From Bacteroidales bacterium (lineage in GTDB: Bacteria > Bacteroidota > Bacteroidia > Bacteroidales > P3): a stretch of 64,000 nt of DNA. The translations under genes and the position numbers were made by a program. A model generated the notes under the pieces. The model was not told where the DNA came from. It did not search any database and worked only from the letters and a program-made list of their open reading frames with translations. This document shows positions 4,482-57,656 of the stretch, in pieces. The stretch spans positions 124,001 through 188,000 of the forward strand of contig JAFZXE010000010.1 of NCBI GenBank assembly GCA_017616895.1. Direction: 5' to 3'. Each line of letters opens with the position of its first letter. Positions within the stretch are counted from its first letter, which is position 1.

Positions 4482-4516
4482 GCGTTGATATGTTGATACG
4501 TTGATATGTTGATATG
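4482..4516. repeat. octamer tandem repeat, family ATGTTGAT
   Basis: Four consecutive 8-base units (GCGTTGAT, ATGTTGAT, ACGTTGAT, ATGTTGAT) begin right after the acyltransferase stop codon. The family recurs at 5723-5786 and 26861-26936, and as reverse complement at 49916-49955 and 57593-57656. Confidence 0.85.
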
Positions 4517-4554
4517 GTTAGTGTCCGCCAACCACTAACTGCCGACTACTAATC

Positions 4555-4577
4555 GCCCTGTGCGGGCACGCACCTAA
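4555..4577. repeat. dispersed GTGCGGGCACGCAC element, copy 1
   Basis: The core CCTGTGCGGGCACGCACC is identical to part of 5921-5959, which flanks the other side of manC. It contains an imperfect inverted repeat (GTGCG/CGCAC). Its function is unknown. Confidence 0.7.
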
Positions 4578-4586
4578 CTGCTAATC

Positions 4587-4663
4587 ACTTAAAACTTACA
4601 GCTTACAGCTTAAAACTTACAATTTAAAACTTACAACTTACAGCTTAAAACTTACAGCTCAAG
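4587..4663. repeat. heptamer tandem repeat, family ACTTACA/GCTTAAA
   Basis: Eleven consecutive 7-base units alternate between ACTTACA, GCTTACA, GCTTAAA, ACTTAAA and ATTTAAA. The array runs into the manC stop codon (4659-4661). A 23-base stretch recurs as reverse complement at 41966-41988, upstream of nadD. Confidence 0.88.
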
Positions 4664-5702
4664 CACTAAACTCTTTGATATGCTGTTCCTCGCTTAGGCG
4701 GCATATCAGGAGGCGGCCGTCTTTCACCGCTACAATATAGTCTTTGAGGCCTTCGACAATCACACGGTTCATGTCGGACACATGCACCACGCAACCTTCG
4801 CAGTTGTGCAGGTCGGTATTCGATCCAATCACGGCGTTGCCTTGAGCGTCACGGGTTGCGTTCTGCAGCAGCGAACCCCAGGTACCCAGGTCGCTCCATC
4901 CGAGGTCGGCGGCTATGACATGTATGTTGTCGGCCTTCTCCATCACGGCATAGTCGATACTTATCTTCTCGTAGGTGGGGAAGAGTTTTTTCAGTGTCGC
5001 CTGCTCGTCGGCGGTGTAGAGCGACGGCTCGATATTGTCCATCACACATGCAATCTGCGGTGCGAAGGTGCGGAGCGAACGCTCTATCGTGGCAACACTC
5101 CACACGAAGATGCCGGCATTCCAGTAGTAGGAGCCGTTTTCGAGATAGTATTTCGCCGTCTCCAGGTCGGGTTTCTCCCTGAAAGCAGCCACCCGCTCCA
5201 CATCACCCGTCACCTTCTCTTGCGACGACTGGATGTAGCCGTAACCCGTTTCGGGACGACTGGGCTTGATGCCTATGGTGACGATGGCGTCGTGGTTTTC
5301 GGTAAATTCGAGCGCTTCACTCAGCACCCTGCGGTATTCGTCGGTCTTCAACACAAGGGCGTCGCTCGGAGTCACGATGATGCGGGCGTCGGCGTCACGT
5401 TTGGCTATCTTGCGGCTGGCGTAGGCTATACAGGGAGCTGTGTTGCGGGCTTCCGGCTCAGCCAAGATATTGTCAGACGGAATATCGGGAAGCTGCTCAC
5501 GCACTATGGTGACATATTTCTCCGACGTCACAATCCAGATATTTTCTATAGGACAAAGCGGCAGCAACCGGTCAACGGTCATCTGCAATAGAGTGCGACC
5601 CAATCCGAGTACGTCGATAAACTGTTTGGGGTATTCAGGGACGCTCATCGGCCAGAAGCGGCTTCCGATGCCGCCTGCCATTATAACTATGTGGGTGGAC
5701 AT
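4659..5702 (-). CDS. manC: mannose-1-phosphate guanylyltransferase
   Basis: This 347-residue nucleotidyltransferase makes GDP-mannose from mannose-1-phosphate and GTP in the cytosol, feeding glycan and polysaccharide synthesis. The N-terminus MAGGIGSRFWPMS is the GTP-binding signature, followed by PKQF at about 25-28, EPEARNTAPC and FREKPD with GSYYWNAGIFVW. It has the single-domain length and lacks the C-terminal phosphomannose isomerase domain found in longer bifunctional enzymes. The stop codon lies inside a heptamer array and the start follows an octamer array, so both flanks of the gene are repeat-filled. Confidence 0.92.
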   Translation of the reverse strand: MSTHIVIMAGGIGSRFWPMSVPEYPKQFIDVLGLGRTLLQMTVDRLLPLCPIENIWIVTSEKYVTIVREQLPDIPSDNILAEPEARNTAPCIAYASRKIAKRDADARIIVTPSDALVLKTDEYRRVLSEALEFTENHDAIVTIGIKPSRPETGYGYIQSSQEKVTGDVERVAAFREKPDLETAKYYLENGSYYWNAGIFVWSVATIERSLRTFAPQIACVMDNIEPSLYTADEQATLKKLFPTYEKISIDYAVMEKADNIHVIAADLGWSDLGTWGSLLQNATRDAQGNAVIGSNTDLHNCEGCVVHVSDMNRVIVEGLKDYIVAVKDGRLLICRLSEEQHIKEFSA

Positions 5703-5722
5703 TTTTTTCGTTGATAGGTTTT

Positions 5723-5786
5723 ATGTTGATACGTTGATATGTTTATATGTTGATACGTTGATATGTTGATATGTTTAAATGTTTGA
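5723..5786. repeat. octamer tandem repeat upstream of manC
   Basis: Eight exact-phase 8-base units of the ATGTTGAT/ACGTTGAT/ATGTTTAT family begin 20 bases upstream of the manC start. Confidence 0.88.
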
Positions 5787-5880
5787 AAGGTTTTAATGTT
5801 CAAGTGCTTAAAAGGTAACTGATAACTAACTGCTGTGTGCGAATTACTGCTGATAGGTTTATACAAGAGTTTCTATTGTC

Positions 5881-5910
5881 TATTCACTATTCACAACTTC
5901 ACAATTTCAC
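5881..5910. repeat. 7/8-base tandem repeat, family TATTCAC/AATTTCAC
   Basis: Units TATTCAC, TATTCAC, AACTTCAC and AATTTCAC follow each other. The family recurs at 7244-7280 and as reverse complement at 22396-22483 and 28082-28109. Confidence 0.75.
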
Positions 5911-5920
5911 AAAATTAATT

Positions 5921-5959
5921 GCCCTGTCGGGCACGACCCCTGTGCGGGCACGCACCTAA
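5921..5959. repeat. dispersed GTGCGGGCACGCAC element, copy 2 (with a partial duplicate)
   Basis: It shares CCTGTGCGGGCACGCACC with 4555-4577 and is preceded by a related CCCTGTCGGGCACGACC. Its right end contains the TAG stop codon (minus strand) of the membrane protein at 5956. Confidence 0.7.
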
Positions 5960-6222
5960 ACTTCCTCCATCAGATTCTCGTTCACGTCGAGCGGCTGGTA
6001 TTTCTCTTTCGACTTGCATCTGGCGTCCATACGCTTTCCACACACACATCCGTTCGACTCGCCCGTATAGGGGTCGCGGCTGGCGCAATGACGTTTGAAC
6101 TCGCCTTTCTTGCGCACCAGCACCTTCACGCCTAGCCCTACCATAAGCAAAGCTAAGGCGACGAAGGCAGCTATGAGTATGACGACAAACAGACGCATAA
6201 ACAGATACAAAAAAGGCCGCAT
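5956..6222 (-). CDS. small membrane protein of unknown function, conserved-looking in Bacteroidales
   Basis: This protein of 88 residues, or 80 if it starts at 6198, has one strong hydrophobic helix (about residues 9-32) followed by a basic, Cys-containing tail (HCASR, CVCGK, ARCKSK) and an end like PLDVNENLMEEV. It resembles short proteins annotated 'membrane or secreted protein' in Bacteroidales, but I cannot give a function. The ATG at 6222 lies in the loop of the tRNA-Asn terminator hairpin, so the start at 6198 (MRLFVVILIAAF) may be the real one. A longer frame reaching 6246 would overlap the tRNA and is rejected. It may be transcribed by read-through from tRNA-Asn. Confidence 0.6.
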   Translation of the reverse strand: MRPFLYLFMRLFVVILIAAFVALALLMVGLGVKVLVRKKGEFKRHCASRDPYTGESNGCVCGKRMDARCKSKEKYQPLDVNENLMEEV

Positions 6223-6231
6223 CTCTGCGGC
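6209..6231 (-). terminator. intrinsic terminator of tRNA-Asn
   Basis: On the minus strand, GCCGCA-GAGA-TGCGGC is followed by CTTTTTTG, starting eight bases after the tRNA 3' end. This is a compact stem with a tetraloop and T-run. Confidence 0.82.
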
Positions 6232-6238
6232 TTTCTTG

Positions 6239-6312
6239 CTCCCCAAGCAGGACTTGAACCTGCGACCCCCTGATTAACAGTCAGGTGCTCTAACCAACTG
6301 AGCTATTGAGGA
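6239..6312 (-). tRNA. tRNA-Asn (anticodon GTT)
   Basis: The 74-base cloverleaf has a 7-bp acceptor stem (TCCTCAA/TTGGGGA with one T-G pair), a D arm with AGCTCAGTTGGTTAGAGC, an anticodon loop reading CTGTTAA in the stem CCTGA/TCAGG, and the T arm GGTTCAAGTCC. The CCA end is not encoded. It has its own promoter and terminator. Confidence 0.97.
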
Positions 6313-6341
6313 AGGTTGACTTGTTTCTCTCAAATCGGGTG

Positions 6342-6372
6342 CAAAAGTACGCAGTTTTCCTGATATGGCAAA
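6342..6372 (-). promoter_or_regulatory. promoter of tRNA-Asn (TTTG-N19-TACTTTTG)
   Basis: The -7 element TACTTTTG (minus strand, 6349-6342) and -33 element TTTG (6372-6369) have the Bacteroidetes spacing of 19. The sequence downstream, GCACCCG, is shared with the region upstream of tRNA-Leu. Confidence 0.72.
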
Positions 6373-6418
6373 ATTTTTTTTGCAAATTAATTCAGCACAC
6401 AGCTTTACGCACTATCAC

Positions 6419-7213
6419 TCACCCTGTTACGAGTTTCAAGCCATCAATGATATCGCTGGCGATAATGGTGGCTTGAGGCTGAGAAGAGGCTGTTATGTCG
6501 GCAGATTTGCCATGAATATACACACCGAAACAGGCGGCATCGAACAAAGGCATCCGTTGTGCCAAAAGAGCCAGCAGAATACCCGTCAGCACATCGCCGC
6601 TGCCGGCAGTTGCCATACCGGGATTGCCCGTAGTGTTTTCATATATTTCGCCGTCGGGCGAATAGACTTTGGTGTGATGACCTTTCTTCACTATCACAAT
6701 GCCGTTCTCTTTCGCCGCAGACGAAGGGTCGGCGTCGCCGAACAGCCGTTCATACTCTTTGGCGTGTGGAGTCACGATGGTGTGGTCTTTCAGCAGCGGC
6801 AGCAGGTCGTTATGTTGAGCGACGATGTTGAGTGCGTCGGCGTCGAGCACCAGCGGCCGCTCGCCCCAGTCGGCAAGGAGCGTCTTCAGGACGAGATATG
6901 TCCTCTCGGCCGTACCTATACCAGGTCCGACAGCCAATGCGTTGTATCTAGAAAGGTTGGACGGCACATTTGCAAAGAGCATCCCGTCGTAGTCAATCGA
7001 CGTCATCGCTTCGGGCACCGCGCACTGGATGACGTTCAACCCCTTCTCCGGGAGATGAACCGTCAGAAGTCCGACACCGCTTCGCATACAGGCACGAGCC
7101 GCCAACACAGCGCATCCCATCTTCCCGTAGCTACCCGCCACAAGCAAAGCATGCCCATAGTCACCCTTGTGGGTGTCGTCGCGACGAGAGTTCCAAAATC
7201 CCGGAAAATTCAA
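6419..7213 (-). CDS. nnrD: ADP-dependent NAD(P)H-hydrate dehydratase
   Basis: This 264-residue ribokinase-fold enzyme repairs hydrated NAD(P)H (NADHX/NADPHX) in the cytosol. It shows the family signature NPGMATAGSGDVLTG at 197-211 and GDYGHALLVAGS near the N-terminus. Many bacteria fuse this domain to an NnrE epimerase. Here only the dehydratase is present, with no epimerase gene beside it. The start appears to be TTG at 7213, because no ATG precedes the first conserved block and TAA lies five codons upstream. That TTG sits in a heptamer-like sequence (GAAATTTTGAATTTT). The arginine decarboxylase gene ends 67 bases upstream on the same strand. Confidence 0.88.
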   Translation of the reverse strand: MNFPGFWNSRRDDTHKGDYGHALLVAGSYGKMGCAVLAARACMRSGVGLLTVHLPEKGLNVIQCAVPEAMTSIDYDGMLFANVPSNLSRYNALAVGPGIGTAERTYLVLKTLLADWGERPLVLDADALNIVAQHNDLLPLLKDHTIVTPHAKEYERLFGDADPSSAAKENGIVIVKKGHHTKVYSPDGEIYENTTGNPGMATAGSGDVLTGILLALLAQRMPLFDAACFGVYIHGKSADITASSQPQATIIASDIIDGLKLVTG

Positions 7214-7243
7214 AATTTCAAGTAATTAGTGGTAAGTATTGTC

Positions 7244-7280
7244 AATTCACTATTCACACTTTCACATCTTCACTATTCAC
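7244..7280. repeat. 7/8-base tandem repeat, family TATTCAC, abutting a stop codon
   Basis: Units AATTCAC, TATTCAC, ACTTTCAC, ATCTTCAC and TATTCAC end exactly where the decarboxylase stop codon begins at 7281. Confidence 0.8.
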
Positions 7281-8681
7281 CTAGTATCCCAAAATCTTCA
7301 GCATCGACTTGTGGCTCTGCTCTTTGGCGAAGAGTTTGGTGGTATATTCGCCGTTTTCGTCCTTATCTATTATAATATGTTTCGGAGCGGGGATGAGGCA
7401 ATGCTGTATGCCGCCATAACCGCCCAGCGACTCCTGGTAGGCACCCGTGTGGAAGAAGCCTATGTAGAGCGGCTCGTCCTTCTGCAACTTCGGCAGGAAT
7501 ATGGCGTTGGCGTGAGAGTCGGCGTTGTAGTAGTCCTCGCTGTCGCAGGTGAGACCCCCGAGGAATACGCGCTGGTATTCGCAATCCCAGTGGTTGATGG
7601 GCAGCATGATGAATCGCTGGTTGATGCCCCACGTGTCGGGCAGCGTCGTGATGAACGAGCTGTCTATCATATACCACAGCTCGCGGTCGTTCTGCTGTTT
7701 CTGTCCTAATATACTATATAAGGTGGCTCCGCTTTCGCCCACCGTGAACGATCCAAACTCGGTGAAGATGTTCGGCTCCTCCACTCCGCGGTTGGTGCAG
7801 ATGGTCTTTATCTGGTTCAGTATCTCCTCTGCCATATATTCGTAGTCGAAGTTGCTGGCCAGCGAAGTCTTCGACGGGAAGCCGCCTCCGATGTTCAGCG
7901 AGTCGAGCTCTGGACACACACGCTTCAGGTCGCAATACACGTTCAAACACTTGGAAAGCTCGTTCCAGTAGTAGGCGGTGTCGCGTATTCCGGTGTTGAT
8001 GAAGAAGTGAAGCATCTTGAAGGTAAACTTCTTGTTCGGCTTAATCTGTTCCTCGTAGAAACTCAGTATATCGTTGTATCTTATTCCCAGTCGCGAAGTG
8101 TAGAAGTCAAACTTCGGCTCTTCTTCAGCCGCAATGCGTATGCCGAGTTTCATCGGCACAGCCGGATTCTCCAGCATCTCGTCGAGCGCATAGTACTCGC
8201 TTTTGTTATCCAGAATGGGCACCACGTTGTAGAACCCCTCGTTATACAGGTTCACAATATTTTCAATATACTGCTGTTTCTTGAACCCATTGCATACGAT
8301 AAACTTGTCCTTGTCGATAAGTTGCTGAGCATAAAGCTCCTGTATCAGGTTGATGTCGAACGCCGACGACGTCTCGAGGTTCACGTCGTTCTTCAGCGCC
8401 TCCTCCATCACAAACGAGAAATGGCTGCTCTTGGTGCAGTAACAGTAGTTATACGTACCGTTATAGTCGGTCTTCGCTATAGCCACGTTAAACATACGCT
8501 TCGCCCTCTGTATCTGCGAACTTATCTTCGGCAGATAGGTGATTTTCAGAGGTGTGCCATACTGCTTGATGATTTCCATCAGCGGGATGTCGTGAAACAT
8601 CAGTTCGCCTTCCTCCGTGCGGAATTCATCCTGCGGAAAATCGAACGTCTGGTCAATTAAATCGTAATACTTGTTCTTCAT
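7281..8681 (-). CDS. speA: arginine decarboxylase (PLP-dependent, fold III, Bacteroidetes type)
   Basis: This 466-residue alanine-racemase-fold decarboxylase probably turns arginine into agmatine for polyamine synthesis. The N-terminal NYCYCTKSSH supplies the expected PLP lysine (Lys84), and the middle has LNIGGGFPSK, the phosphate-binding glycine loop. It matches the compact form of about 465 residues found in Bacteroidetes, shorter than the roughly 650-residue enterobacterial SpeA. No other polyamine gene lies nearby, so substrate assignment rests on family likeness only. A minus-strand -7 box lies 63 bases upstream. Confidence 0.87.
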   Translation of the reverse strand: MKNKYYDLIDQTFDFPQDEFRTEEGELMFHDIPLMEIIKQYGTPLKITYLPKISSQIQRAKRMFNVAIAKTDYNGTYNYCYCTKSSHFSFVMEEALKNDVNLETSSAFDINLIQELYAQQLIDKDKFIVCNGFKKQQYIENIVNLYNEGFYNVVPILDNKSEYYALDEMLENPAVPMKLGIRIAAEEEPKFDFYTSRLGIRYNDILSFYEEQIKPNKKFTFKMLHFFINTGIRDTAYYWNELSKCLNVYCDLKRVCPELDSLNIGGGFPSKTSLASNFDYEYMAEEILNQIKTICTNRGVEEPNIFTEFGSFTVGESGATLYSILGQKQQNDRELWYMIDSSFITTLPDTWGINQRFIMLPINHWDCEYQRVFLGGLTCDSEDYYNADSHANAIFLPKLQKDEPLYIGFFHTGAYQESLGGYGGIQHCLIPAPKHIIIDKDENGEYTTKLFAKEQSHKSMLKILGY

Positions 8682-8744
8682 TTTTGCAATCCAAGTTAAT
8701 TAGATTAATAAAAACCTCACAATCCGACTCACTCAAATCGCCTG

Positions 8745-15934: not shown

Positions 15935-16449
15935 CCGATGCGTACCAGCACTATGACGCAAGCCCGACCCACATAGATTAGTGTCGGCATAGAGCGTACT
16001 GTCTAATGATTAGACATCCGATAGGCGGGGAATGGAAGCCCCATACAACGGACAAACCAGAAGCCGGTTCGGAGCCATACCCGAGTTAAATCGAAGTTTA
16101 GTCGAAGTTAGGTAGGAGTTAAGTCGGAGTTGTGTCGATGTTGAGTAGGAGTTGACTAGGGGTTGAGTAGGCTTTGACCTAGAACTACCCTAGAATTAAC
16201 CTAGAGTTACCCTAGAATTACCCTAGAATTAGAAGTAACTACATTTTAATAAAAAATTGGGGATTATTATATCATAGATATAATAATGGAACGAGGCCGA
16301 ACTGAGCGATATTGTATTAGACAGGAAAAATATTTTCGGTAGGTCAGATACCCTAAAAGGCATTCAACCTATGACTGTTTTTTTGTAAAATCCATTCAAC
16401 TTTTTCTAGGGAAATACCAATGACAGCTGTCAGTTGTTGTGCCGAGTCG
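15935..16449. other. 515-base intergenic region without a gene, holding an 11-base-period array
   Basis: I see no coding frame of note. The left part (to about 16080) is plain sequence. The 11-mer array fills 16083-16236, followed by AT-rich DNA to 16410 and a perfect 12-base palindrome TGACAGCTGTCA at 16421-16432 just past the peptidase 2 stop. The genes on both sides point into this region. Confidence 0.7.
16083..16236. repeat. 14-unit degenerate tandem repeat with exact 11-base period
   Basis: Fourteen consecutive 11-base units keep phase without a gap. Early units look like GAGTTAAGTCG and GAGTTGAGTAG, late ones like GAATTACCCTA and GAATTAACCTA. The GARTT start of each unit is conserved throughout, while the last five bases change from AGTCG-like to CCCTA-like midway. 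Confidence 0.88.
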
Positions 16450-21714: not shown

Positions 21715-22395
21715 TTAATTAATCGTATTGAATGTCATATTCCAAGAGGGTTCGGCCTCGACATTTATCTTTATGTGGCTCACGGGGTGTTCGAAACATA
21801 CACGACGAGAGTGGAGCGAGATGCTGCCGTCGGGGTTGGAGCGAGGAGCTCCGTATTTGAGGTCGCCTTTGATGGGACAGCCGATATTGGCCAGCTGGCA
21901 GCGTATCTGGTGGTGACGGCCAGTGTGGAGGTTGACCTCTATGAGGTAGTAGCCGCCATCTGATTTTCCTATGACCTTATAATCCAAAACAGCTTCCTTT
22001 GCACCTTCTTTAGTACCGTCGGCAACCACAAAACTTTTATTCATCTTCTCGTTACGCACCAGCCAGTTGCGGAGTTCGCCCTCCATGGGCTCGGGGCAGG
22101 TCTTAGAGACAGCCCAATAGGTCTTCTCTATGGCACGTTCTTTCACCAGCGCGTTCATGCGGGAGAGAGCTTTGGAGGTCTTGGCGAATATTACCACGCC
22201 GCTGACCGGGCGGTCGATGCGGTGTACAAGTCCGCAGAAGACATTTCCAGGTTTATGGTCACGCTCTTTTATGTATGCCTTCAATTCGTCAACCAGACAT
22301 GAGTCGCCACTCTTGTCGCCTTGCACAAGTTCACCCGCACGTTTGTTGACGAGCAGCAGGTGGTTGTCCTCATATATGATCTGATCGGCGGTCAT
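21715..22395 (-). CDS. RluA-family pseudouridine synthase
   Basis: This 226-residue protein has the RluA catalytic motif HRIDRPVSG (58-66), with Asp61 as the nucleophile, and the later LHTGRHHQIRCQLA block. It converts specific uridines in rRNA or tRNA to pseudouridine. It has no S4 domain and is short, like the single-domain RluA members, so the exact target is unknown. The start codon directly abuts an 88-base octamer array that separates it from cdsA. Confidence 0.92.
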   Translation of the reverse strand: MTADQIIYEDNHLLLVNKRAGELVQGDKSGDSCLVDELKAYIKERDHKPGNVFCGLVHRIDRPVSGVVIFAKTSKALSRMNALVKERAIEKTYWAVSKTCPEPMEGELRNWLVRNEKMNKSFVVADGTKEGAKEAVLDYKVIGKSDGGYYLIEVNLHTGRHHQIRCQLANIGCPIKGDLKYGAPRSNPDGSISLHSRRVCFEHPVSHIKINVEAEPSWNMTFNTIN

Positions 22396-22483
22396 GTGAA
22401 TTTGTGTAGGTGTGAAGGAGTGTAGGTGTGAAGGTGTGTAGTTGTGAATTTGTGAAGGTGTGTAGTTGTGAATTTGTGAATTA
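22396..22483. repeat. 11-unit octamer array filling the cdsA-rluA gap exactly
   Basis: Eleven 8-base units (GTGAATTT, GTGTAGGT, GTGAAGGA, GTGAAGGT, GTGTAGTT and others) occupy every base between the RluA-gene start codon (22393-22395) and the cdsA stop codon (22484-22486). Confidence 0.93.
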
Positions 22484-26285: not shown

Positions 26286-26293
26286 TATTCAAG

Positions 26294-26851: not shown

Positions 26852-26860
26852 TGTTTTTTT

Positions 26861-26936
26861 GTTGATATGTTGATACGTTGATATGTTGATATGTTGATAG
26901 GGTTTTTGTTGATGGGTTGATATGTGGATATGTTGA
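26861..26936. repeat. octamer tandem repeat, family GTTGATAT, filling a gene gap
   Basis: Five in-phase units (GTTGATAT, GTTGATAC, GTTGATAT, GTTGATAT, GTTGATAG) are followed by looser copies up to the stop of the DoxX-like gene at 26942. Almost the whole 90-base gap is repeat. Confidence 0.85.
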
Positions 26937-28075: not shown

Positions 28076-28081
28076 GGGTTT

Positions 28082-28109
28082 GTGAATTGTGAATAGTGAA
28101 TAGTGAATT
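28082..28109. repeat. heptamer tandem repeat, family GTGAATA
   Basis: Four in-phase units (GTGAATT, GTGAATA, GTGAATA, GTGAATT) lie in the 49-base gap between DUF1599 and the DoxX-like gene. Confidence 0.82.
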
Positions 28110-28124
28110 GACAAATGAGATTGT

Positions 28125-36848: not shown

Positions 36849-37128
36849 GACAAAAAATGTCGCGTATATAATATAATAGACGCAAAGGGGTGCAAAAATT
36901 GACAAAGGGGGTGAAATTTTAACATTTTTTTTTACGGGGAACGCTTTTTTTTGATTGCGAAACCGGAGAAAAGTTCGTATATTTGTAGTGTCGAAATGAT
37001 GATTGTGTTCTTTTGCAAAGACATATATATCAATTTGTTGAGATGTATTCAAGAAATACTGATGTCAACGACGGCACAAAACTTGCGGTTTCAACCGACT
37101 GAAACAGAAAGCCAAACAACATTCACCC

Positions 37129-37260
37129 CCGTATCAAGGACGTATCACCTCCGTATTAACGCCGTATCAACGCCGTACCACCTCTAAGATTCATCCAGGA
37201 TTCATTAAGGGTAACTTAAGGGTTTCTCCATGTTGGCTCTAGGATTTCTCTATGGTGGCT
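37129..37260. repeat. 12-unit degenerate tandem repeat with exact 11-base period
   Basis: Twelve 11-base units run without phase change: five like CCGTATCAACG, then CTAAGATTCAT, CCAGGATTCAT, TAAGGGTAACT, TAAGGGTTTCT, CCATGTTGGCT, CTAGGATTTCT and CTATGGTGGCT. Neighbouring units are most alike, and the motif drifts along the array while the period stays fixed. Confidence 0.85.
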
Positions 37261-37535: not shown

Positions 37536-39440
37536 ATGGAACTAGACGAGGAACTGAACATACAACCTGCCCACGACTACGGCGACGACAGCATAGTGCA
37601 CCTTGAGGACATGGAGCACATAAGGCTCCGTCCGGGTATGTATATAGGCAAGCTGGGAGACGGCTCAAGCCACGACGACGGAATATATGTGCTGATAAAA
37701 GAGGTTATCGACAACGCGATAGACGAGTTTTCGTCGGGATTCGGAAAGAAGATATCGGTGAAGATAAACTTCGGGGAGAAGAAGGTGTCGATAAGAGACT
37801 ATGGCCGCGGAATACCGCTGGGGAAGATGGTGGAGGCTGTGTCGAAGCTGAACACAGGAGCGAAATACGACAGCAAGGTGTTCCAGAAGAGTGTGGGATT
37901 GAACGGAGTGGGTACGAAGGCGGTGAACGCGCTGAGCAGCTGGTTCAAGGTGCAGTCGGTGAGAGACGGGAAGACGAGGATAGCGGAGTTCAGCGAAGGG
38001 AAGCTGACGGAAGACAGCGGCATCATAAACTGCAAGAACGAGGAGAACGGCACGCTGGTGGAGTTTATTCCTGATGCGGCGCTGTTTGGCAACTACCACT
38101 TCATAAACGAGTATGTGGAGAAGAGGGTGTGGAACTACTGCTACCTGAACAGAGGGTTGACGGTATATTACAACGACAAGAGGTACTACTCGAAGAACGG
38201 GTTGCTGGATTTGCTGGAGCACAACATGGATGCCGAGCCGCTGTACCCGATAATACACATCAAGGACGACGACTTCGAGGCGGCGTTCACACACGTGAAC
38301 GGACAGTCGAACGACTACTACTACTCGTTTGTGAACGGGCAGCACACAACGGAAGGCGGCACGCACCAGAGTGCGTTCAAGGAGGCGTATGCGAGGGTGG
38401 TGAAAGATTTCTATAAGAAAGACTGCGAGCCGTCGGACGTGAGGCAAGGACTTGTGTGCGCACTGTGTGTGAGGATACAGGAGCCCGTGTTTGAGGCGCA
38501 GACGAAGACGAAGCTGGGTTCGACCCACATGGCGCCGAACAAGAAAGACGGCACGAACGACAGCCCGCTGGTGAAGACATACGTGCTGGACATACTGAAG
38601 AAACATCTGGACGACTATCTGCACATACATTCGGAGACGGCCGAGATACTGCTGCAGAAGATAAACCAGAACGAGAAAGAGAGAAAAGAGATAGCCGGCA
38701 TCAAGAAGATAGCACGCGAGGCGAGAAAGGGCGCAAGCCTGAACAACCCGAAGCTGAGAGACTGCCACGTACACTATAACAGCAGCCACCCGAGAAGGCT
38801 GGAATCGACGATATTCATCACAGAGGGACTTTCGGCATCGGGCTCGATTACGAAGTCGAGAGACGTGGAGACGCAGGCGGTGTTTAGCTTGCGCGGAAAG
38901 CCGAAGAACACGGTATCGACGGGCAAAGAGTTTGTTTATAAGAACGACGAGCTGAACCTGCTGCACAACGCGCTGGACATAGACGAAGGGATAGAGAACC
39001 TGCGGTACAACAACGTGGTGATCGCGACGGATGCCGATGTCGATGGTATGCACATAAGGCTGCTGCTGCTGACGTTCTTCCTGAGGTTCTATCCAGATTT
39101 GGTGAGACAAGGACACGTGTATATACTGCAGACGCCGCTGTTCAGGGTGAGGAACAAGCAGAAGACGATATACTGCTACAGCGACGAAGAGAGGGTGAAC
39201 GCGATAAACACGCTGAAGGGTGCGGAAATTACGCGATTCAAAGGATTGGGAGAGATTTCGCCCGACGAGTTCAAAGGATTTATAAACCAAGACATGAGGC
39301 TTGACCCCGTGATACTGCACAAAGACTTCGACACGAAAGGAGTGCTGCACTTCTATATGGGCGAAAACACGATGGAGAGACGCGACTTCATCATGGCGAA
39401 CCTGAAGGTGGAGGATGACGAGAGTATAATGGTGGGGTGA
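37536..39440 (+). CDS. parE: DNA topoisomerase IV subunit B (GyrB/ParE family)
   Basis: This 634-residue type IIA topoisomerase ATPase subunit shows [10 protein letters not shown], the GHKL ATP site ([34 protein letters not shown]), the transducer QTKTKLG and the TOPRIM motifs EGLSASGS and [10 protein letters not shown], then [11 protein letters not shown]. The length fits the short ParE of Bacteroidetes. ParE with ParC decatenates daughter chromosomes. In related genomes parC usually follows parE; here a repeat array and a small lipoprotein follow, and parC is not in the window. Frequent AGA/AGG and ATA codons stand out by eye. Confidence 0.93.
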
Positions 39441-39539
39441 AAGGTTTGAAAGGGTTGAAGGGTTCGAGAGTTCAAGAGTTCAAGGGGTTCAAGGGGTTCA
39501 AGGTGTTCGAGGGGTTCAAGGAGTTTTGAGTTTTGAGTC
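39439..39539. repeat. 7/8/9-base tandem repeat, family GGTTCAAG, downstream of parE
   Basis: About twelve units (GAAGGGTT, CGAGAGTT, CAAGAGTT, CAAGGGGTT, CAAGGTGTT, CGAGGGGTT, TTGAGTT and others) begin at the parE stop codon and fill the gap nearly to the next start. Confidence 0.85.
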
Positions 39540-41952: not shown

Positions 41953-41965
41953 TGGTCAGTGTTTA

Positions 41966-42009
41966 GTTTTAAGCTGTAAGTTTTAAGTATTAAGTGCTTT
42001 TAGTTTTAC
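41966..42009. repeat. heptamer tandem repeat, family GTTTTAA/GCTGTAA, upstream of nadD
   Basis: Units GTTTTAA, GCTGTAA, GTTTTAA, GTATTAA and GTGCTTT run up to the nadD start. The first 23 bases are the exact reverse complement of part of the manC-side array at 4587-4663. Confidence 0.85.
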
Positions 42010-42010
42010 G

Positions 42011-42589
42011 TTGAAAAAGACCGGACTTTTCTTCGGGTCGTTCAATCCAATACATGTAGGGCACCTGATTATAGCCAACACCATGCTTACGAGTAGTGAG
42101 CTGGAGGAAGTATGGTTTGTAGTGTCGCCACAAAATCCGCTAAAAGAGAGAAGCACCCTTTTGGCAGATCACCACAGGCTCCAGATGGTGCGTGTAGCCA
42201 TTGAGGACAACTTCCACATGAGGGCCTGCGACATCGAATTCCACCTGCCAGTGCCATCATATACGGTAGTGACATTGGCGCACCTGGGTGAGCAGTACCC
42301 CGAGCGCGAGTTCTGTCTTATCATGGGGTCGGACAACCTTGACAACCTACACCGCTGGCGCAACTACGAGTACATCCTCAACAACTATAAAATATACGTA
42401 TATCCCCGTCCGGGCCACCTCGGAGGCGATTTCGCCTCACATCCCAATGTAACGATGGTTGACGTACCCATGATGGATATCTCATCGAGCTATATCCGAG
42501 AACAGATACGCAACCACCGCTCGGTAGAGTACCTGCTTACCGAGCCGGTATATAAATACTTGACGGAGATGCATTTCTACGAAAAATAA
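42011..42589 (+). CDS. nadD: nicotinate-nucleotide adenylyltransferase
   Basis: This 192-residue enzyme makes deamido-NAD from nicotinate mononucleotide and ATP. It has the nucleotidyltransferase signature GLFFGSFNPIHVGHL near the start and ISSSYIREQI near the end, as in NadD. The start is TTG at 42011 (TTGAAAAAG); no ATG precedes the conserved GSFNPIH core and the upstream sequence is heptamer repeat. It overlaps nothing but lies two bases before the MATE gene, so the two are probably coupled. Confidence 0.95.
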   Translation: MKKTGLFFGSFNPIHVGHLIIANTMLTSSELEEVWFVVSPQNPLKERSTLLADHHRLQMVRVAIEDNFHMRACDIEFHLPVPSYTVVTLAHLGEQYPEREFCLIMGSDNLDNLHRWRNYEYILNNYKIYVYPRPGHLGGDFASHPNVTMVDVPMMDISSSYIREQIRNHRSVEYLLTEPVYKYLTEMHFYEK

Positions 42590-49901: not shown

Positions 49902-49955
49902 TTAGCAATCAGTAAACGTATCAACATATCAACGTATCAACTTTTAACACTTAAC
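49885..49955. repeat. heptamer then octamer repeats at the tamB 3' end
   Basis: Heptamers GTGGCTA, GTGGTCG, GTAGTTA, GCAATCA, GTAAACG (49885-49919) span the tamB stop codon and belong to the same family as the first ileS insert. They are followed by octamers ACGTATCA, ACATATCA, ACGTATCA. Confidence 0.8.
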
Positions 49956-52666: not shown

Positions 52667-53458
52667 CCACCCACCCCAACTGCAAGATAAACATCGGCCT
52701 GCACGTAACCTCACACCGTGCAGACGGCTATCACGAGCTGGAAACCGTGTTCATGCCTGTTCCTCTGTGCGACACACTCACCATCGAACCTGCTGCCGAT
52801 TTCCGTTTTACGCAAAGCGGTATAGCCGTTGACTGTCCTGCGGAAGAGAATATCTGTGTCAAAGCCTATCGAATGATGCAGAACCGTTATCCGCAGATTG
52901 GCGACATCCACCTGCACCTCAAAAAAAACATACCCTTCGGAGCCGGACTTGGCGGAGGTAGCAGCGATGCAGCACATGTAATCACAATGCTCAACGAGCT
53001 GTTCGACTTAAACCTGAGCCAGGCAGAATTATGCAGCCTTGCTAAGAATATAGGCGCCGACTGCCCGTTTTTCATTTTGAACCGCCCCTGCTACGCCACA
53101 GGCATAGGCGACCGACTGGAACCCCTCAACTTTCAACTTTCAACTCATACTCCTAAAGCCCCCTGTGTCGGTCTCCACCGCCGACGCCTACCGTGGAATA
53201 ACCCCACATCCCTCAAACATCGACCTAAGGAACGCCTTCAACGACCCCGTGGAAGATTGGCGCAAACTTATCGTGAACGACTTCGAGTCCACGGTATTTC
53301 CCAAGTATCCCATAATTGCAGAGCTGAAACAACAGCTCTACGAAAGAGGTGCCGTCTATGCCAGCATGTCAGGCAGCGGCAGCGCGCTCTTCGGACTTTT
53401 CAAAGAGTTGCCTGAAGAAAAGCTGCCCTTTGAGATTTATAGGAGCAATGATTTCTAG
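52663..53458 (+). pseudogene. ispE: 4-diphosphocytidyl-2-C-methyl-D-erythritol kinase, frameshifted in a heptamer repeat
   Basis: IspE phosphorylates CDP-ME in the MEP isoprenoid pathway. The first frame (from ATG 52663) gives a normal GHMP kinase to about residue 161, with the ATP motif PFGAGLGGGSSDAA and YATGIGDRLEPL. It then runs out of frame. The C-terminal third (LLKPPVSVSTADAYRGITP...SGSGSALFGLF) continues in another frame to TAG at 53456-53458. The junction is the heptamer series CTTTCAA at 53128-53149. Removing one 7-base unit gives EPLNFQLILLKPPVSVST and a clean 262-residue IspE. So it is one repeat unit away from intact: a real slip, a phase-variable state or an assembly error. Confidence 0.85.
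53128..53149. repeat. CTTTCAA heptamer repeat at the ispE frameshift
   Basis: TCAACTT, TCAACTT, TCAACTC: three in-phase units. Loss or gain of one unit changes the frame by one, because 7 is not a multiple of 3. Confidence 0.85.
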
Positions 53459-53490
53459 ATAATCTAGAGACTCTAGATATACTAGACATA
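53454..53490. repeat. 8/9-base tandem repeat, family CTAGATA, between convergent genes
   Basis: TCTAGATA, ATCTAGAGA, CTCTAGATA, TACTAGACA and TACTAGAA fill the space between the ispE stop codon and the patatin gene's stop codon at 53491. Confidence 0.82.
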
Positions 53491-55821
53491 CTAGAATATA
53501 TATCCCAGCGAGAGGTAAACCCCGAAACGCTTATACACGTTCGACCAGAAGCCCGTCAACGACAACGGCCCCACAGGACTGTCGTAGGCATACTGCAAAC
53601 CGAAACCGTAGCGATCCTCGTAGTCCTTGCCGAAGTAATGCCAGTAGGCGTCGGACGAGGCTAAATAGTTAGCCATCGCCGTGAGGTAGTGCTTGCCCTT
53701 CACGTTGCAGCGGATATCGAGACGCACCACTGTGGCACACCTTTCTGCCTGCTGTGGAGTGAGGACTCCTATAAACGGCATCTGATGGGCGATATAGCGA
53801 CCTGCCACCTCGCCACCCACAAGGTTACGGTAAGCGAAGTGGTAATCCGAGCCGATGATGAAACGGGTGTACAACTGCGGTATCAAGGTAAAGCGTCCGC
53901 CTAGCGGAGTGATAAAATGCTGGTATGCTACGCTGATATCGGCAAATCCCGGTGCTTTTATCGAGTCGGGATGCACCAGGTCGTGGTTGTTGATACGCCA
54001 GCGAGCGTCGAGGTCCACGTTGGCCCCGTTTCGGGCAAAGTAGCTGTCGTCGCGCGAGTCGTATTTAAACGTGACAAACGTGCCGAGACTACCCGTTCTA
54101 AGGTTGTCGTCGCCAAACAGCAGCGCATTGCCTCCCTGCAGACGGTCAAACAGCAAAAACTCTTCATCCACACCCGCGGTACCCGAGAAACGGAAAAGGT
54201 AGAATTCCGAGAAGAAGAAACTGAAGTCGTGACGGTAGAAATGCGTCGAATAGTATCTCTGCGAAAGCAGGCTGCCCATGTCGAACCTACTGTTGTAAAG
54301 CCTGTACGCCAGGTTTATCTTGGCAAACTTGCGGGCAGCGTATGTGCCCACCAGGTCGAGGTGATAGTTCTGTGCCAGACGCAGCGACACGTCGGCCTTG
54401 AATCCTCTCAGCGTGTTGCGGTTGAACCCCACGTTGAGCAACACGGCGGCTGCCTCTTCCGAGTCGAAGCGCGCTCCTATCGCAAACGCATGACGGGGCG
54501 ACGGCTCAAAGTCAAATACCAAGTCGTAGCTCTTGACAGAATCCTTGACGTCGGCATCCTGCCCTTTCACGTCCGACAGGCGGTAGCTCACCGCCGAGTA
54601 GGCGCCCGTGCCTTTGAATATGTTCACCGCGTCGATGATGTCCTTGCCCGACACAGGCACGCCCGTCCTGAGTTTGGTTTTTGAGAGCAGCCATTTCTTG
54701 TCCGACTCCGACATCTTACCCATATCTATCGACATGAGGGCCAGTCGGTCGTTTTCGATACTCGACTCACGACGGTGTCCTCTCATCTCGGCGGCAGACT
54801 CCATCTCACGTCCTCTCGCCATCAGCTCCTGTTTCAGAGCCTCTATCTCTTCGGCGTGGGCTTTTGCGCACTCGTATCCGCGACGCACCAAGCTGTCGAT
54901 TGCCGACTTGTTGAAACTCATCGTGCCGAAGCCGCCGATGTCCGGATGCAGGTAAATTCTGCACCCGCCTCGGTTTTGAGCCGACTTGGCCTGCACCGTA
55001 ACGCTCACCAGCTGGTTGAAAATCTGGGGCAGCGATTTCAGCTGCGATGCGTCTGTCGCCATCTCGTCCGACACCTCCACTCCTATCACATAGTCGGCAC
55101 CCATCTCACGACACACATCCACCGGGAAGTTGTTCGTCATTCCGCCATCCACAAGCACCTTGCCGTCAAGCTCTACGGGCGAGAACACACCCGGTATAGC
55201 CATACTGGCACGTATTGCTGTCGGAAACCGACCGCTGCGCATCACATATTCCTCACCGCTTATCACGTCGGTGGCAACGCAGGCAAACGGTACGGGGAAA
55301 TTATTGAAATCCATCGAATCCTGAAAGCCGAGACTCAGGTTGTTAAACAGGTTGGTAATATTGTTTCCACCCATAAACGAACCCGGCAGCGAGGCGATGA
55401 AGCCGTTGTTCCTACGTCTCACCTCGCTGATGTTCGAGTCGAGAGTGCCCAGGTTAAACGGCACCGAAAGCAGATACGCGCTCCTTTCCATACGTGACGA
55501 CGCCGAGCGGTAGCGGCGGTCGAGCACACCGGTGATATATTGCGACCAGTCGAGGTTGCTTATCAGCGAGTCGAGCTGCTCGGCGGTATATCCGATAGAG
55601 TATAAGCCACCCACTATCGAACCCATACTTGTACCAGAGATATAGTCGATAGGGATTCCCTGCTCCACCAAGTATTTCAACACACCGATATGAGCAGCAC
55701 CTTTAGCACCGCCACCACTAAGCGTGAGGCCGACTTTAGGAGAGCCCGACGACTGACCATACGTAAAGCCCGATGCCATCAACATCAAACACAATATAAG
55801 TATGGGCAATATTCTTTTCAT
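53491..55821 (-). CDS. patatin-like phospholipase with BamA-type outer-membrane barrel
   Basis: This protein has 776 residues from ATG 55821. After a signal peptide ending TYGQ (23) comes a patatin domain with oxyanion loop GGGAKG (36-41), nucleophile Ser65 in GTSMGS (63-68) and Asp225 in DGG. A POTRA-like region (about 350-450) and a C-terminal beta-barrel (about 460-776) ending in aromatic YLSLGYIF follow, as in PlpD/type Vd-like secreted phospholipases of Bacteroidetes. It likely sits in the outer membrane and displays or releases the lipase. Convergent with ispE. Confidence 0.92.
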   Translation of the reverse strand: MKRILPILILCLMLMASGFTYGQSSGSPKVGLTLSGGGAKGAAHIGVLKYLVEQGIPIDYISGTSMGSIVGGLYSIGYTAEQLDSLISNLDWSQYITGVLDRRYRSASSRMERSAYLLSVPFNLGTLDSNISEVRRRNNGFIASLPGSFMGGNNITNLFNNLSLGFQDSMDFNNFPVPFACVATDVISGEEYVMRSGRFPTAIRASMAIPGVFSPVELDGKVLVDGGMTNNFPVDVCREMGADYVIGVEVSDEMATDASQLKSLPQIFNQLVSVTVQAKSAQNRGGCRIYLHPDIGGFGTMSFNKSAIDSLVRRGYECAKAHAEEIEALKQELMARGREMESAAEMRGHRRESSIENDRLALMSIDMGKMSESDKKWLLSKTKLRTGVPVSGKDIIDAVNIFKGTGAYSAVSYRLSDVKGQDADVKDSVKSYDLVFDFEPSPRHAFAIGARFDSEEAAAVLLNVGFNRNTLRGFKADVSLRLAQNYHLDLVGTYAARKFAKINLAYRLYNSRFDMGSLLSQRYYSTHFYRHDFSFFFSEFYLFRFSGTAGVDEEFLLFDRLQGGNALLFGDDNLRTGSLGTFVTFKYDSRDDSYFARNGANVDLDARWRINNHDLVHPDSIKAPGFADISVAYQHFITPLGGRFTLIPQLYTRFIIGSDYHFAYRNLVGGEVAGRYIAHQMPFIGVLTPQQAERCATVVRLDIRCNVKGKHYLTAMANYLASSDAYWHYFGKDYEDRYGFGLQYAYDSPVGPLSLTGFWSNVYKRFGVYLSLGYIF

Positions 55822-55841
55822 CGCTGACAAACTTATCTATC

Positions 55842-57044
55842 TTATTTCTTTATCCTGTTCTCCAGCGCCTTGATTGCGTTATATGCTATCAGGCCGTTGG
55901 CGAGTTCGATGCTTCTTTCGTCAACCATCAGGTTAGGACGGTGGAGGTTGCAGAACGGTGTGCCAGGTTCGTGTATGCCGATACGGAAATAGCAGGCGGG
56001 AATCTTCTGTGCAAAGAAGGCAAAGTCTTCTGCCGTCATACGCAGGTCGAGCCACTGCACCTTGTCTTCACCGAGGAAAGCGACAGCGTTGTCGTGTACC
56101 TGCTGGGTACATTCGTCGTCGTTGAACACATACGGATAGCCGTAGTCGATAAAGAGGTCGCATTCGCCTCCCATGCTCTCGGCTATACCGCAGCTTATCT
56201 TACGTATCTTCTCGTGGCATTCGAGGCGCCATTTCTCGTCGAAGGTGCGTATGATGCCTTCCATCTTCACCTCATCGGGGATGATGTTGGTGCGGCCGCT
56301 GCCGATAAACTTGCCGAACGAAAGTGTGGTGGGCATCATGGGTGCGGCGTTGCGGCTCACAATCTGCTGCAGCGCTACGACAATATGACTGGCGATGAGT
56401 ATCGGGTCGACGCTGAGGTGCGGAGTGGCACCGTGTCCTCCCCTACCCTTCACCGTCCAATAGAGTTCATCGGTCGAAGCCATATACTTTCCTTTGCGCA
56501 TACCCACATAGCCGTAATCCATCTCGGGTAGACAATGGAACGAGTAGATCTCGTTGGGAGTGACTTCGTCGAAGAGTCCGTCGTCCATCATCATGCGGGC
56601 ACCGCCTGGGTACATCTCCTCCGACGGCTCGAAGATAAGCATTATGCTTCCACGCAGCTGCTCTTTCAACGCCACCAATATCTTGGCTGCCCCAAGCAGC
56701 GAGCTGGTGTGCATATCGTGTCCGCAGGCATGCATCACGCCGGGGTTCTCCGATGCGAAAGGCAACCCTGTGGCCTCCTGCAACGGCAGAGCATCGTAGT
56801 CGGAACGGAGCGCCACACAGTAGCTGTCGGGTTCGATGCCACCACGTATCATAGCCATACATCCGGTCTTTCCGATGCCGGTCTTGGGTGTAAGCCCCAT
56901 CTCGCGCAGCCGTTCGGCGACGTAGTTCATTGTGCCGTATTCCTGTTGCGAGAGGTCGGGATGACGATGCAGCCAACGACGCATCTCTATCACCGAAGCG
57001 AAGTTTTCGTGGGCAAGCTTTTTTATCTGTTCAATGGTGGGCAT
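55842..57044 (-). CDS. M20 family amidohydrolase
   Basis: This protein has 400 residues from ATG 57044. It belongs to the M20D aminoacylase/carboxypeptidase group (HipO/amhX-like): zinc and active-site motifs HACGHDMH (105-112), EPSEEMYPGGARMM and RMTAEDFAFFAQ with a dimerisation domain between. Such enzymes release acyl groups from amino acids such as hippurate or N-acetyl-L,L-diaminopimelate. The substrate cannot be told from sequence. No signal peptide, so cytosolic. It is in a tight row with DUF456 upstream and the patatin gene downstream. Confidence 0.92.
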   Translation of the reverse strand: MPTIEQIKKLAHENFASVIEMRRWLHRHPDLSQQEYGTMNYVAERLREMGLTPKTGIGKTGCMAMIRGGIEPDSYCVALRSDYDALPLQEATGLPFASENPGVMHACGHDMHTSSLLGAAKILVALKEQLRGSIMLIFEPSEEMYPGGARMMMDDGLFDEVTPNEIYSFHCLPEMDYGYVGMRKGKYMASTDELYWTVKGRGGHGATPHLSVDPILIASHIVVALQQIVSRNAAPMMPTTLSFGKFIGSGRTNIIPDEVKMEGIIRTFDEKWRLECHEKIRKISCGIAESMGGECDLFIDYGYPYVFNDDECTQQVHDNAVAFLGEDKVQWLDLRMTAEDFAFFAQKIPACYFRIGIHEPGTPFCNLHRPNLMVDERSIELANGLIAYNAIKALENRIKK

Positions 57045-57063
57045 TGGGTAATGATGAATAGTA

Positions 57064-57576
57064 TTATGCAAAAATATCGACTATGACGTAGATAAAGAGT
57101 GCGAGTGCGAAAAAGAATTTAACCAAGGTGCTGCCGAGCAGTCCCAAAAAGGAACCGAAGGCTGCCTTGAGAGCAACGTCCCCCTCGGCCCCTGTGGTAA
57201 GCTCACCGATATAGGCACCCACGAAAGGTCCCAAGATGATGCCGATGATATTGGCCGGACCTATGGCTATGCCCAGTATGGGGAACAGGATAAGCGAGAC
57301 AACAGCTCCAATGTTGGCTCCACGCATACCGCGTTTCGAACCTCCGTGATGCTTGGCAGCCCATCCCGGCATGAGGTAGTCGAGGAAAACGAGGAAGAGC
57401 GTGATTGCTCCGGTTATGCCTACCACCCACCAAATATTGTGCCAAGCCTGCGCGGTGAAGGCAAAGACCAGAAGTCCCACCCAGCTGACAGGAGGACCTG
57501 GAAGGACCGGCAAGACAGAACCCACCAATCCTATCACAACACAGACAATAGCGATAATCAGCAATGCAGTATTCAT
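57064..57576 (-). CDS. DUF456 family membrane protein
   Basis: This 170-residue protein is mostly hydrophobic, with about five or six membrane segments and Gly-rich loops, including VLPVLPGPPVSWVGLL near the start and IGPANIIGIILGPFVGAYIGEL in the middle. These are typical of DUF456, whose function is unknown. It lies between the M20 hydrolase and ileS on the same strand; the upstream gap is an octamer repeat. Confidence 0.9.
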   Translation of the reverse strand: MNTALLIIAIVCVVIGLVGSVLPVLPGPPVSWVGLLVFAFTAQAWHNIWWVVGITGAITLFLVFLDYLMPGWAAKHHGGSKRGMRGANIGAVVSLILFPILGIAIGPANIIGIILGPFVGAYIGELTTGAEGDVALKAAFGSFLGLLGSTLVKFFFALALFIYVIVDIFA

Positions 57577-57592
57577 AACCTTGAACTTTACA

Positions 57593-57656
57593 ACATATCA
57601 ACTCATCAACTTATCCACCTATCAACATATAAACATATCAACCTATCCACCTACCA
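57593..57656. repeat. eight-unit octamer array, family ACATATCA, between ileS and DUF456
   Basis: Eight in-phase units (ACATATCA, ACTCATCA, ACTTATCC, ACCTATCA, ACATATAA, ACATATCA, ACCTATCC, ACCTACCA) lie in the 92-base gap. They are the reverse complement of the GTTGATAT family. Confidence 0.88.

What the first reader, a model, noticed from the sequence alone, without database searches (positions are those of the whole stretch)
4482..57656. Degenerate 7-, 8- and 9-base tandem arrays fill many short intergenic gaps
At 4482, 4587, 5723, 5881, 7244, 22396, 26861, 28082, 39439, 41966, 49885, 53454 and 57593 the gap between genes consists of in-phase short units. The families are few and occur in both orientations: GTTGATAT with ATATCAAC, ACTTACA/GCTTAAA with GTTTTAA/GCTGTAA (a 23-base exact reverse-complement match between 4587-4663 and 41966-41988), GTGAATT with TATTCAC, and TTCAAAA with TTTTGAA. 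Heptanucleotide 'STRR' repeats are established in heterocystous cyanobacteria; I know of no described equivalent system in Bacteroidales. Recurrence at unlinked sites implies copying between loci, not only local slippage.
Basis: partly seen in the sequence, partly recalled or inferred. Interest (0 to 1): 0.8.

Follow-up and report, generated by a model that had tools for sequence, protein, structure and literature searches.

The report
Polarised short tandem repeats between genes
The gaps between genes in this bacterium, a relative of rumen Bacteroidales, are filled with a few recurring kinds of short tandem repeat that come and go quickly between species and lie in a preferred direction before gene starts, which looks like spreading repeat DNA that is kept only where it does not disturb gene expression.

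Summary
In 848 kb of the own genome TRF finds 400 mostly intergenic arrays of period up to 15, against 51 in order-2 Markov versions of the gaps. GTTGATATx2 occurs 308 times against 5 in the control, and 0 to 353 times in 36 genus relatives.

Composite segments recur between gaps with unrelated flanking genes.

New here: arrays within 40 bp before a start codon are nearly always in the AC-rich orientation, poor in start codons and weakly folding (GT-rich in 3 of 65, 1 of 17 and 5 of 38 in three species; strict 4/49, 5/21, 2/22). A GT-rich preference after stops holds only in part. I explain this as dispersing, locally amplified arrays filtered by selection on mRNA: a new variant of a known kind (STRR/LSSR/TAACTGA-type repeats).

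The parts
4484..4516 (+). GTTGATAT period-8 array; begins about 4 bp after the stop of the + gene ending at 4480 (acyltransferase); GT-rich on the sense strand of that gene
   Evidence: 0/1000
4555..4573 (-). copy of the 19-nt hairpin element GTGCGTGCCCGCACAGGGC
4587..4656 (-). GTTTTAA/GCTGTAA period-7 (also 21) array next to the stop of the - gene 4659-5702; GT-rich in - sense
   Evidence: 0/1000
5710..5783 (-). ATATCAAC (GTTGATAT on +) array, about 8 bp upstream of the start of the - gene 4659-5702; AC-rich in sense. A short degenerate counterpart exists in the sister species
   Evidence: 0/1000
5882..5912 (-). TGTGAA-type array, period 7/8, downstream (in - sense) of a hairpin copy at 5937-5955
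   Evidence: marginal, 16/1000
7245..7280 (-). irregular GTGAA units next to the stop of the - gene 7281-8681
   Evidence: not significant alone, 128/1000
16083..16231 (+). two adjoining period-11 arrays (AGTTAAGTCGA, then CCTAGAATTAC); similar segments in gaps of C1 and C11
   Evidence: 0/1000
22395..22480 (-). ACTTCACA array, period 8/16, filling the gap and reaching the ATG of the pseudouridine synthase gene (21715-22395, -); absent in the sister species
   Evidence: 0/1000
26860..26936 (-). TATCAACA array (period 8, with a 39-bp block repeat) filling the gap 26851-26942; absent in the sister species
   Evidence: 0/1000
28080..28110 (-). TTCACAA period-7 array about 5 bp upstream of the ATG of the - gene 26942-28075; absent in the sister species
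   Evidence: 0/1000
37123..37260 (+). period-11 arrays (CCGTATCAACG and others) of a longer dispersed element
   Evidence: 0/1000 for both stretches
39438..39525 (+). GGGTTCAAG period-9 array; its first TGA is the stop codon of the gene 37536-39440
   Evidence: 0/1000 for 39452-39525
41965..42012 (+). GTTTTAAGCTGTAAG array after the stop of the gene ending at 41952
   Evidence: 1/1000
49915..49941 (+). AACGTATC array about 29 bp before the start at 49970; AC-rich in sense
   Evidence: 0/1000
53455..53500 (.). CTAGATATA period-9 array with near-palindromic units in a convergent gap
   Evidence: 1/1000
57591..57659 (-). GTTGATAT-type array (period 8; 32-bp block repeat) in the gap beside the stop of the - gene 57669-61115; ambiguous against the polarity rule
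   Evidence: 0/1000

Best explanation
These are dispersed, fast-turning-over intergenic short-tandem-repeat arrays of a genus of Bacteroidales related to rumen MAGs. Each well-sampled species carries a limited set of 7-, 8- and 9-base unit families and a more diverse set of 11-base units. Short seeds or whole composite segments are copied between gaps in either orientation by an agent not yet identified. Once in place they are lengthened by multi-unit tandem duplication and decay by point mutation. Which copies survive is set largely at the mRNA level. Before a start codon the AC-rich orientation lasts, since it carries few ATG/GTG/TTG and hardly self-pairs; the GT-rich orientation, which carries starts and folds through G-U pairs, is removed there and is found elsewhere, often behind stop codons. 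Shown: recurrence of families, intergenic location, species turnover, shared composite segments, orientation at starts. Inferred: the copying route, local duplication as the growth step, and that purifying selection (not biased insertion) makes the orientation.
For: Families: 14 and 11 families hold 100 and 93 arrays of period 7 and 8, against 42 and 44.5 for letter-shuffled units. GTTGATATx2: 308 against 5 in the reversed control. Copying: 56 gap pairs in G000, 63 in G034 and 9 in G014 share segments of at least 45 bp at 85% or more with non-homologous flanks and less than half of the segment in one array; among co-directional gaps 30 of 42, 20 of 45 and 4 of 8 lie in the same sense, so inverted copies are common. 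Block periods (24, 32, 39 bp) match better than the unit period at three window arrays. Polarity: before starts GT-rich 3/65, 1/17, 5/38 in G000, G014, G034 and 2/16 in pooled other genus samples; strict 4/49, 5/21, 2/22. Array-free 40-bp start flanks are GT-rich in 124/288, 69/154 and 56/134. Fold energy of array plus 30 nt in G000: native -5.6, flipped -12.9 kcal/mol; 0.41 against 5.70 start codons per array (n=80); G014 and G034 agree. Arrays in divergent gaps show no side preference in G000 (10 AC/11 GT left, 6/6 right) or G014 (4/4, 10/8), as expected if the constraint acts on transcripts.
Against: Array-free leaders show only a mild lack of sense start codons (0.039 against 0.061 per bp in G000), so the filter would have to act much harder on arrays. 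Base-shuffled arrays fold about as weakly as native ones in G000 and G034 (p 0.24 and 0.94; G014 p 0.04), and sense starts before genes are only a little below the composition expectation in G000 and G014 (52 against 65.8; 13 against 19.8), clearly so only in G034 (6 against 28.7); the rule is mostly one of strand composition. The GT preference after stops (81/96, 18/29, 38/52; convergent 16/16 in G000 and 11/11 in G034) falls to 45/65, 9/24 and 12/23 with strict gene ends, and the model gives no clear reason for it. In divergent gaps G034 does show a side preference (left 3 AC/10 GT, right 6/3), and in convergent gaps of G014 the right side is against the rule (1 AC/4 GT). Period 9 and period 11 arrays taken alone show no significant gradient, and pooled other genus samples only rho -0.25, p 0.07. 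Some shared segments are MITE-like elements, not arrays. No copying enzyme was found.
Confidence: 0.6

Rival explanations
1. Functional intercistronic elements: the arrays are domesticated 5' and 3' modules of operons, AC-rich arrays acting as unstructured leaders for SD-independent initiation and GT-rich arrays plus the post-stop hairpin acting as 3' insulators, kept by positive selection.
For: In G000, 37 of 228 arrays in co-directional gaps end within 10 bp of the start, 23 overlap the stop and 38 begin within 10 bp of it; the hairpin directly follows a stop triplet in 30 of 66 G000 copies (6 of 25 in G014); within gaps the order GT then AC outnumbers the reverse 54 to 10. Bacteroidetes lack SD sequences and initiation is tuned by mRNA structure (PMC6847099, start of abstract in the search listing).
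Confidence: 0.2
2. Local slippage alone: each gap makes its own array from local seeds, and recurrence of units is convergent.
For: Multi-unit block repeats; degenerate units.
Against: Few families against shuffled units; shared composite segments with non-homologous flanks; 308 against 5. MutS_I is present in G000, so simple loss of mismatch repair is not the cause there.
Confidence: 0.07
3. End-extension geometry: at breaks in gaps a telomerase-like or terminal-transferase-like enzyme adds GT-rich repeats outward from both sides, giving GT on the left and AC on the right of every gap whatever the gene directions.
For: Within gaps the order GT then AC prevails 54:10, 16:5 and 25:5 in three species.
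Against: Divergent gaps show no such order in G000 (4:5) and G014 (3:4), though G034 has 5:1; the stop-side rule is weak in two species with strict gene ends. No such enzyme was searched for.
Confidence: 0.05
4. RAYT/REP-type mobility spreads the hairpin element and the arrays beside it.
For: The hairpin is dispersed (107 copies in G000, 68 in G014), often lies at stop codons and has compensated variants.
Against: No Y1_Tnp (PF01797) match in G000 or G014, the two hairpin-rich genomes, while 17 of the 24 genus relatives searched carry one. The hairpin is found in only 4 of 41 genomes, once each in two of them, whereas arrays are wider. G034 was in neither search.
Confidence: 0.06

Closest known systems
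TAACTGA heptamer direct repeats of Beggiatoaceae, cyanobacteria and some Bacteroidetes (MacGregor 2015, PMC4679880)
   Same: Short intergenic tandem heptamers, abundance that differs by species, preferred orientation near start codons in some species, present in some Bacteroidetes; the paper already says that coding potential and secondary structure will decide tolerated sites and orientations (section 24)
   Different: One unit was studied there; here many units of period 7, 8, 9 and 11 lie in one genome. In the Beggiatoaceae the stop-bearing orientation lies before starts; here the AC-rich orientation, with fewer stops and very few starts, does
STRR repeats of filamentous cyanobacteria
   Same: Tandem repeats usually of 7 bp in promoter and intergenic regions, function unknown (one passage of PMC2670836 seen; the rest recalled)
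   Different: Different lineage; here also 8-, 9- and 11-mers, and a measured polarity
Long simple sequence repeats of 5-11 nt (Mrazek 2007, as reported in PMC4679880 section 3)
   Same: Unit lengths 5-11, heptamers prominent, slippage proposed
   Different: These arrays are degenerate and occur as dispersed families with shared composite segments
BrickBuilt minisatellite/MITE of Porphyromonas gingivalis (PMC4596501, abstract read)
   Same: Dispersed, intergenic tandem repeats in a member of Bacteroidales
   Different: 23-bp unit with leader and tail ends, 19 copies; here units of 7-11 bases in hundreds of arrays
REP elements (recalled)
   Same: Dispersed small hairpin beside stop codons (hairpin component only)
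   Different: No Y1_Tnp found in the two carrier genomes

Membership tests
STRR (cyanobacterial) | heptanucleotide unit | tested here: inconclusive
   102 period-7 arrays in G000 but also 94 of period 8, 51 of period 9 and 81 of period 11
STRR (cyanobacterial) | intergenic and dispersed in many copies | tested here: met
STRR (cyanobacterial) | shared descent or unit sequences with cyanobacterial STRR | not tested
   no cyanobacterial sequences compared
TAACTGA repeats | unit TAACTGA | tested here: not met
   not among the 12 listed of 14 period-7 families of G000
TAACTGA repeats | stop-bearing orientation just upstream of starts | tested here: not met
   before starts the sense strand of arrays bears fewer stops than the antisense strand (2.2 against 5.0 per array in G000) and the AC-rich orientation prevails
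Long simple sequence repeats (5-11 nt) | tandem units of 5-11 nt in excess of chance | tested here: met
   400 against 51 in Markov versions of the gaps; 306 against 17 and 20
BrickBuilt MITE | 23-bp tandem unit | tested here: not met
   periods 7, 8, 9, 11 dominate (only periods up to 15 were counted)
BrickBuilt MITE | leader and tail with inverted-repeat ends | not tested
   not looked for
REP/RAYT (hairpin only) | small hairpin dispersed in the genome | tested here: met
   107 copies against 0 in the control; compensated stem variants, but also broken pairs
REP/RAYT (hairpin only) | RAYT (Y1_Tnp) in the carrier genome | tested here: not met
   0 matches in G000 (88% complete) and G014 (97%)

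The most novel reading that the evidence does not exclude
A genus of gut bacteria has turned intergenic repeat arrays into gene-boundary punctuation: interchangeable repeat families obey one RNA-level strand rule (GT-rich and stop-bearing behind genes, AC-rich and hardly foldable before them), so that selfish short repeats are continually recruited as SD-free leaders and 3' insulators of operons.
Probability: 0.2. Interest if true: 0.8.

Novelty: new variant of a known kind. Interest (0 to 1): 0.6.

Why it matters
The orientation of many unrelated repeat families before start codons is a natural experiment on which leaders an SD-less bacterium tolerates. It also makes an old question testable: whether bacterial short tandem repeats such as STRR spread by copying, and what decides where they stay. 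Array content of gaps differs so fast between species that it might also mark lineages in rumen metagenomes.

Tried and rejected
Loss of mismatch repair as the cause: MutS_I is present in G000 and in 39 of 41 genomes searched; the two without a match are G021 (95 GTTGATATx2 hits) and G050. RAYT as mover of the hairpin: no Y1_Tnp in G000 or G014. A start-codon-only filter: composition explains most of the deficit in G000 and G014. A symmetric rule for stops and starts: I first believed it, but strict gene ends weaken the stop side. An end-extension (telomere-like) model: divergent gaps do not follow it in two of three species; tRNA ends gave only 3 arrays. Reading the two overlapping stems of the hairpin as a pseudoknot: compensated variants exist in both (10 copies at one pair of stem 1; 4, 1 and 1 at three pairs of stem 2), but they may be subfamilies, broken pairs also occur, and the loops look too short (recalled geometry). 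Literature searches for an account of such arrays in rumen or other Bacteroidales brought up only the papers cited; that is an absence in this library and with these terms.
Full report
Check of the observation. TRF finds an array at or near each of the 13 places named. Against dinucleotide shuffles that may choose any period from 5 to 12, 11 of 13 sites are reached by at most 1 of 1000 shuffles; 5882 is marginal (16) and 7244 is not significant alone (128). The 23-base inverted match is 19 bases. Period-11 arrays at 16083-16231 and 37123-37260 were missed. Reading the 13 sites by eye against my gene calls, 11 fit the polarity described below (GT-rich after a stop, AC-rich before a start), 53455 has near-palindromic units, and 57591 is ambiguous.

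Genome scale. The window is C22:124001-188000 of a 2.61-Mb, 31-contig assembly, 88% complete. In 451 kb I found 306 arrays of period up to 15 (score 36 or more, genic ones included) against 17 and 20 in Markov sequences. In 848 kb there are 400 arrays lying mostly outside called genes, against 51 in order-2 Markov versions of the same gaps; periods 7, 8, 9, 11, 14 and others give 102, 94, 51, 81, 43 and 29. About 10% of intergenic bases lie in arrays (451 kb). For period 7, 8 and 9 there are 14, 11 and 24 families among 100, 93 and 49 arrays, against 42, 44.5 and 45.1 when unit letters are shuffled; period 11 is more diverse (47 among 79 against 78).

Relatives. The nearest named matches to one window protein are Bacteroidales or Bacteroidetes MAGs, several of them from rumen. 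GTTGATATx2 with up to two mismatches gives 308 hits in G000. Among 36 genus relatives it gives 353 in G034, 246 in G011, 101 in G014 and 95 in G021; 11 of 36 have 20 or more and 3 of 36 none. Of 24 genomes of other families in the order only G052 exceeds 9 (27 hits, below its control of 34). Intergenic arrays per 100 kb: G000 47.2, G014 39.0, G034 47.7; the other genus samples (12-60 kb each) range from 0 to 120, in many mainly 11-mers. In 20 samples of other families the period 7, 8 and 11 classes total 10 arrays in about 336 kb. Unit families differ between species, but AACATATC is common to G000 (41), G034 (28) and G014 (8).

Turnover. A sister species (L021, genome G065; matched stretches 73-81% identical in DNA) is collinear over window 1-11230 and, inverted, over most of 16450-34852. 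The arrays at 22395 and 26860 sit in gaps that are 6 and 49 bp long and array-free in the sister. The sister genome has 135 GTTGATATx2 hits against 1 in the control.

Copying. After removing pairs with homologous flanking proteins, 226 gap pairs in G000 (of 231) share at least 45 bp at 85% or more. In 56 of them less than half of the segment lies in a single array, so composite order is shared too. G034 gives 164 and 63, G014 25 and 9. Among such composite pairs from co-directional gaps 30 of 42, 20 of 45 and 4 of 8 are in the same sense, so inverted copies are frequent. Some of these pairs are MITE-like elements rather than arrays. Within arrays, multi-unit block periods (24 at 5709, 32 at 57591, 39 at 26868) match better than the unit period, as expected of local block duplication.

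Polarity. In co-directional gaps the position of arrays of period 7-9, 14 and 15 (0 at the upstream stop, 1 at the next start) correlates with their sense-strand keto skew: rho -0.56 (n=228), -0.53 (82) and -0.52 (139) in G000, G014 and G034; -0.25 (53, p 0.07) in the pooled other genus samples; period 9 alone (G000, G034) and period 11 alone are not significant. For arrays close to just one gene end, GT-rich sense strands number 3 of 65, 1 of 17 and 5 of 38 before starts, and 81 of 96, 18 of 29 and 38 of 52 after stops (other genus 2 of 16 and 10 of 16); array-free flanks are GT-rich in 124/288, 69/154, 56/134 before starts and 100/217, 39/100, 36/94 after stops. With strongly supported genes, ATG starts and arrays wholly outside genes, the start side stays (4/49, 5/21, 2/22) while the stop side falls to 45/65, 9/24 and 12/23. 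I therefore rest the case on the start side. Part of the stop-side signal may be ascertainment, since stop-bearing arrays end reading frames (23 of 228 arrays overlap the stop). Within one gap GT precedes AC 54:10, 16:5 and 25:5; divergent gaps show 4:5, 3:4 and 5:1. Family by family, the two orientations of one unit mostly occupy opposite sides of the gap.

Why orientation could matter. Four GTTGATAT units fold to -6.6 kcal/mol as RNA, with G-U pairs; the complement does not fold. Flipping arrays within 40 nt of a start lowers the fold energy of array plus 30 nt from -5.6 to -12.9 (n=80), -6.8 to -12.4 (29) and -5.2 to -9.7 (43) and raises start codons per array from 0.41 to 5.70, 1.83 to 5.90 and 0.21 to 3.23. 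Base-shuffled arrays fold like native ones in G000 and G034, so strand composition is what counts. Bacteroidetes initiate without SD pairing, tuned by mRNA structure (PMC6847099, start of abstract in listing). Array-free leaders show only a mild deficit of sense starts (0.039 against 0.061 per bp in G000; 0.038/0.058 and 0.039/0.048 in G014 and G034).

Hairpin companion. GTGCGTGCCCGCACAGGGC with up to two mismatches occurs 107 times in G000, 68 in G014 and once each in two of the other 39 genomes searched. In the samples, with up to three mismatches, 30 of 66 G000 copies directly follow a stop triplet (6 of 25 in G014), 21 lie exactly at a called stop, and 17 of 66 lie in called genes. Compensated changes occur at one pair of stem 1 (10 copies) and at three pairs of the overlapping stem 2 (4, 1, 1); every pair also has 2-13 broken cells of 91.

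Literature. Seen: PMC4679880 (abstract, sections 3, 9, 10, 24), PMC4596501 (abstract), passages of PMC2700814 (heptanucleotide elements in Geobacter) and PMC2670836; others only in search listings. Known kin exist, so I rate this a new variant of a known kind. New, as far as searches can tell, are the many-family, four-period make-up in one genus, the measured turnover and the start-side strand rule.

Limits: gene calls come from a simple codon-based caller of my own, not a standard annotator; there are no expression data; samples of most relatives are 20 kb or less; the genomes are MAGs or drafts.

Noticed in passing
window 4555-4573 and 5937-5955 (- strand); 107 places in G000: A 19-nt hairpin element GTGCGTGCCCGCACAGGGC, often directly behind a stop codon, found in 4 of 41 genomes searched and abundant only in G000 and G014.
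   Followed up: partly
own-genome gaps C1:110718-111005, C1:182343-182566, C3:56591-56796, C17:103222-103430: A MITE-like element of about 70-90 bp (ATTCACACATGCTTTAGCATTGATGAGCACC...AATTCAC) lying inside heptamer arrays in both orientations.
   Followed up: no
window 16083-16231 and 37123-37260; own-genome gaps C1:68546-69117, C11:50725-51590: Longer dispersed elements of about 100-300 bp built from successive 11-mer units of different sequence (for example GTATCAACGCC then TATACCCCTTA), frequent in divergent gaps of G000 and G014; 11-mers occur in many of the genus samples.
   Followed up: partly
window 40554-41185: Long period-18 tandem repeat (34.8 copies, GCTCCTGCTAAGAAAGCT) inside the ORF 39864-41225, an Ala/Lys/Pro repeat.
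   Followed up: no
window 8906-11302 and 16450-21667: Gingipain-like C25 peptidase with a Por secretion tail; DNA similarity of 65-67% between this gene and the two long genes at 16450-21667 through their sister copies.
   Followed up: no
window 34372-34461: tRNA-Leu gene region identical over 89 bp with the sister species while neighbouring matches are 74-81% identical.
   Followed up: no
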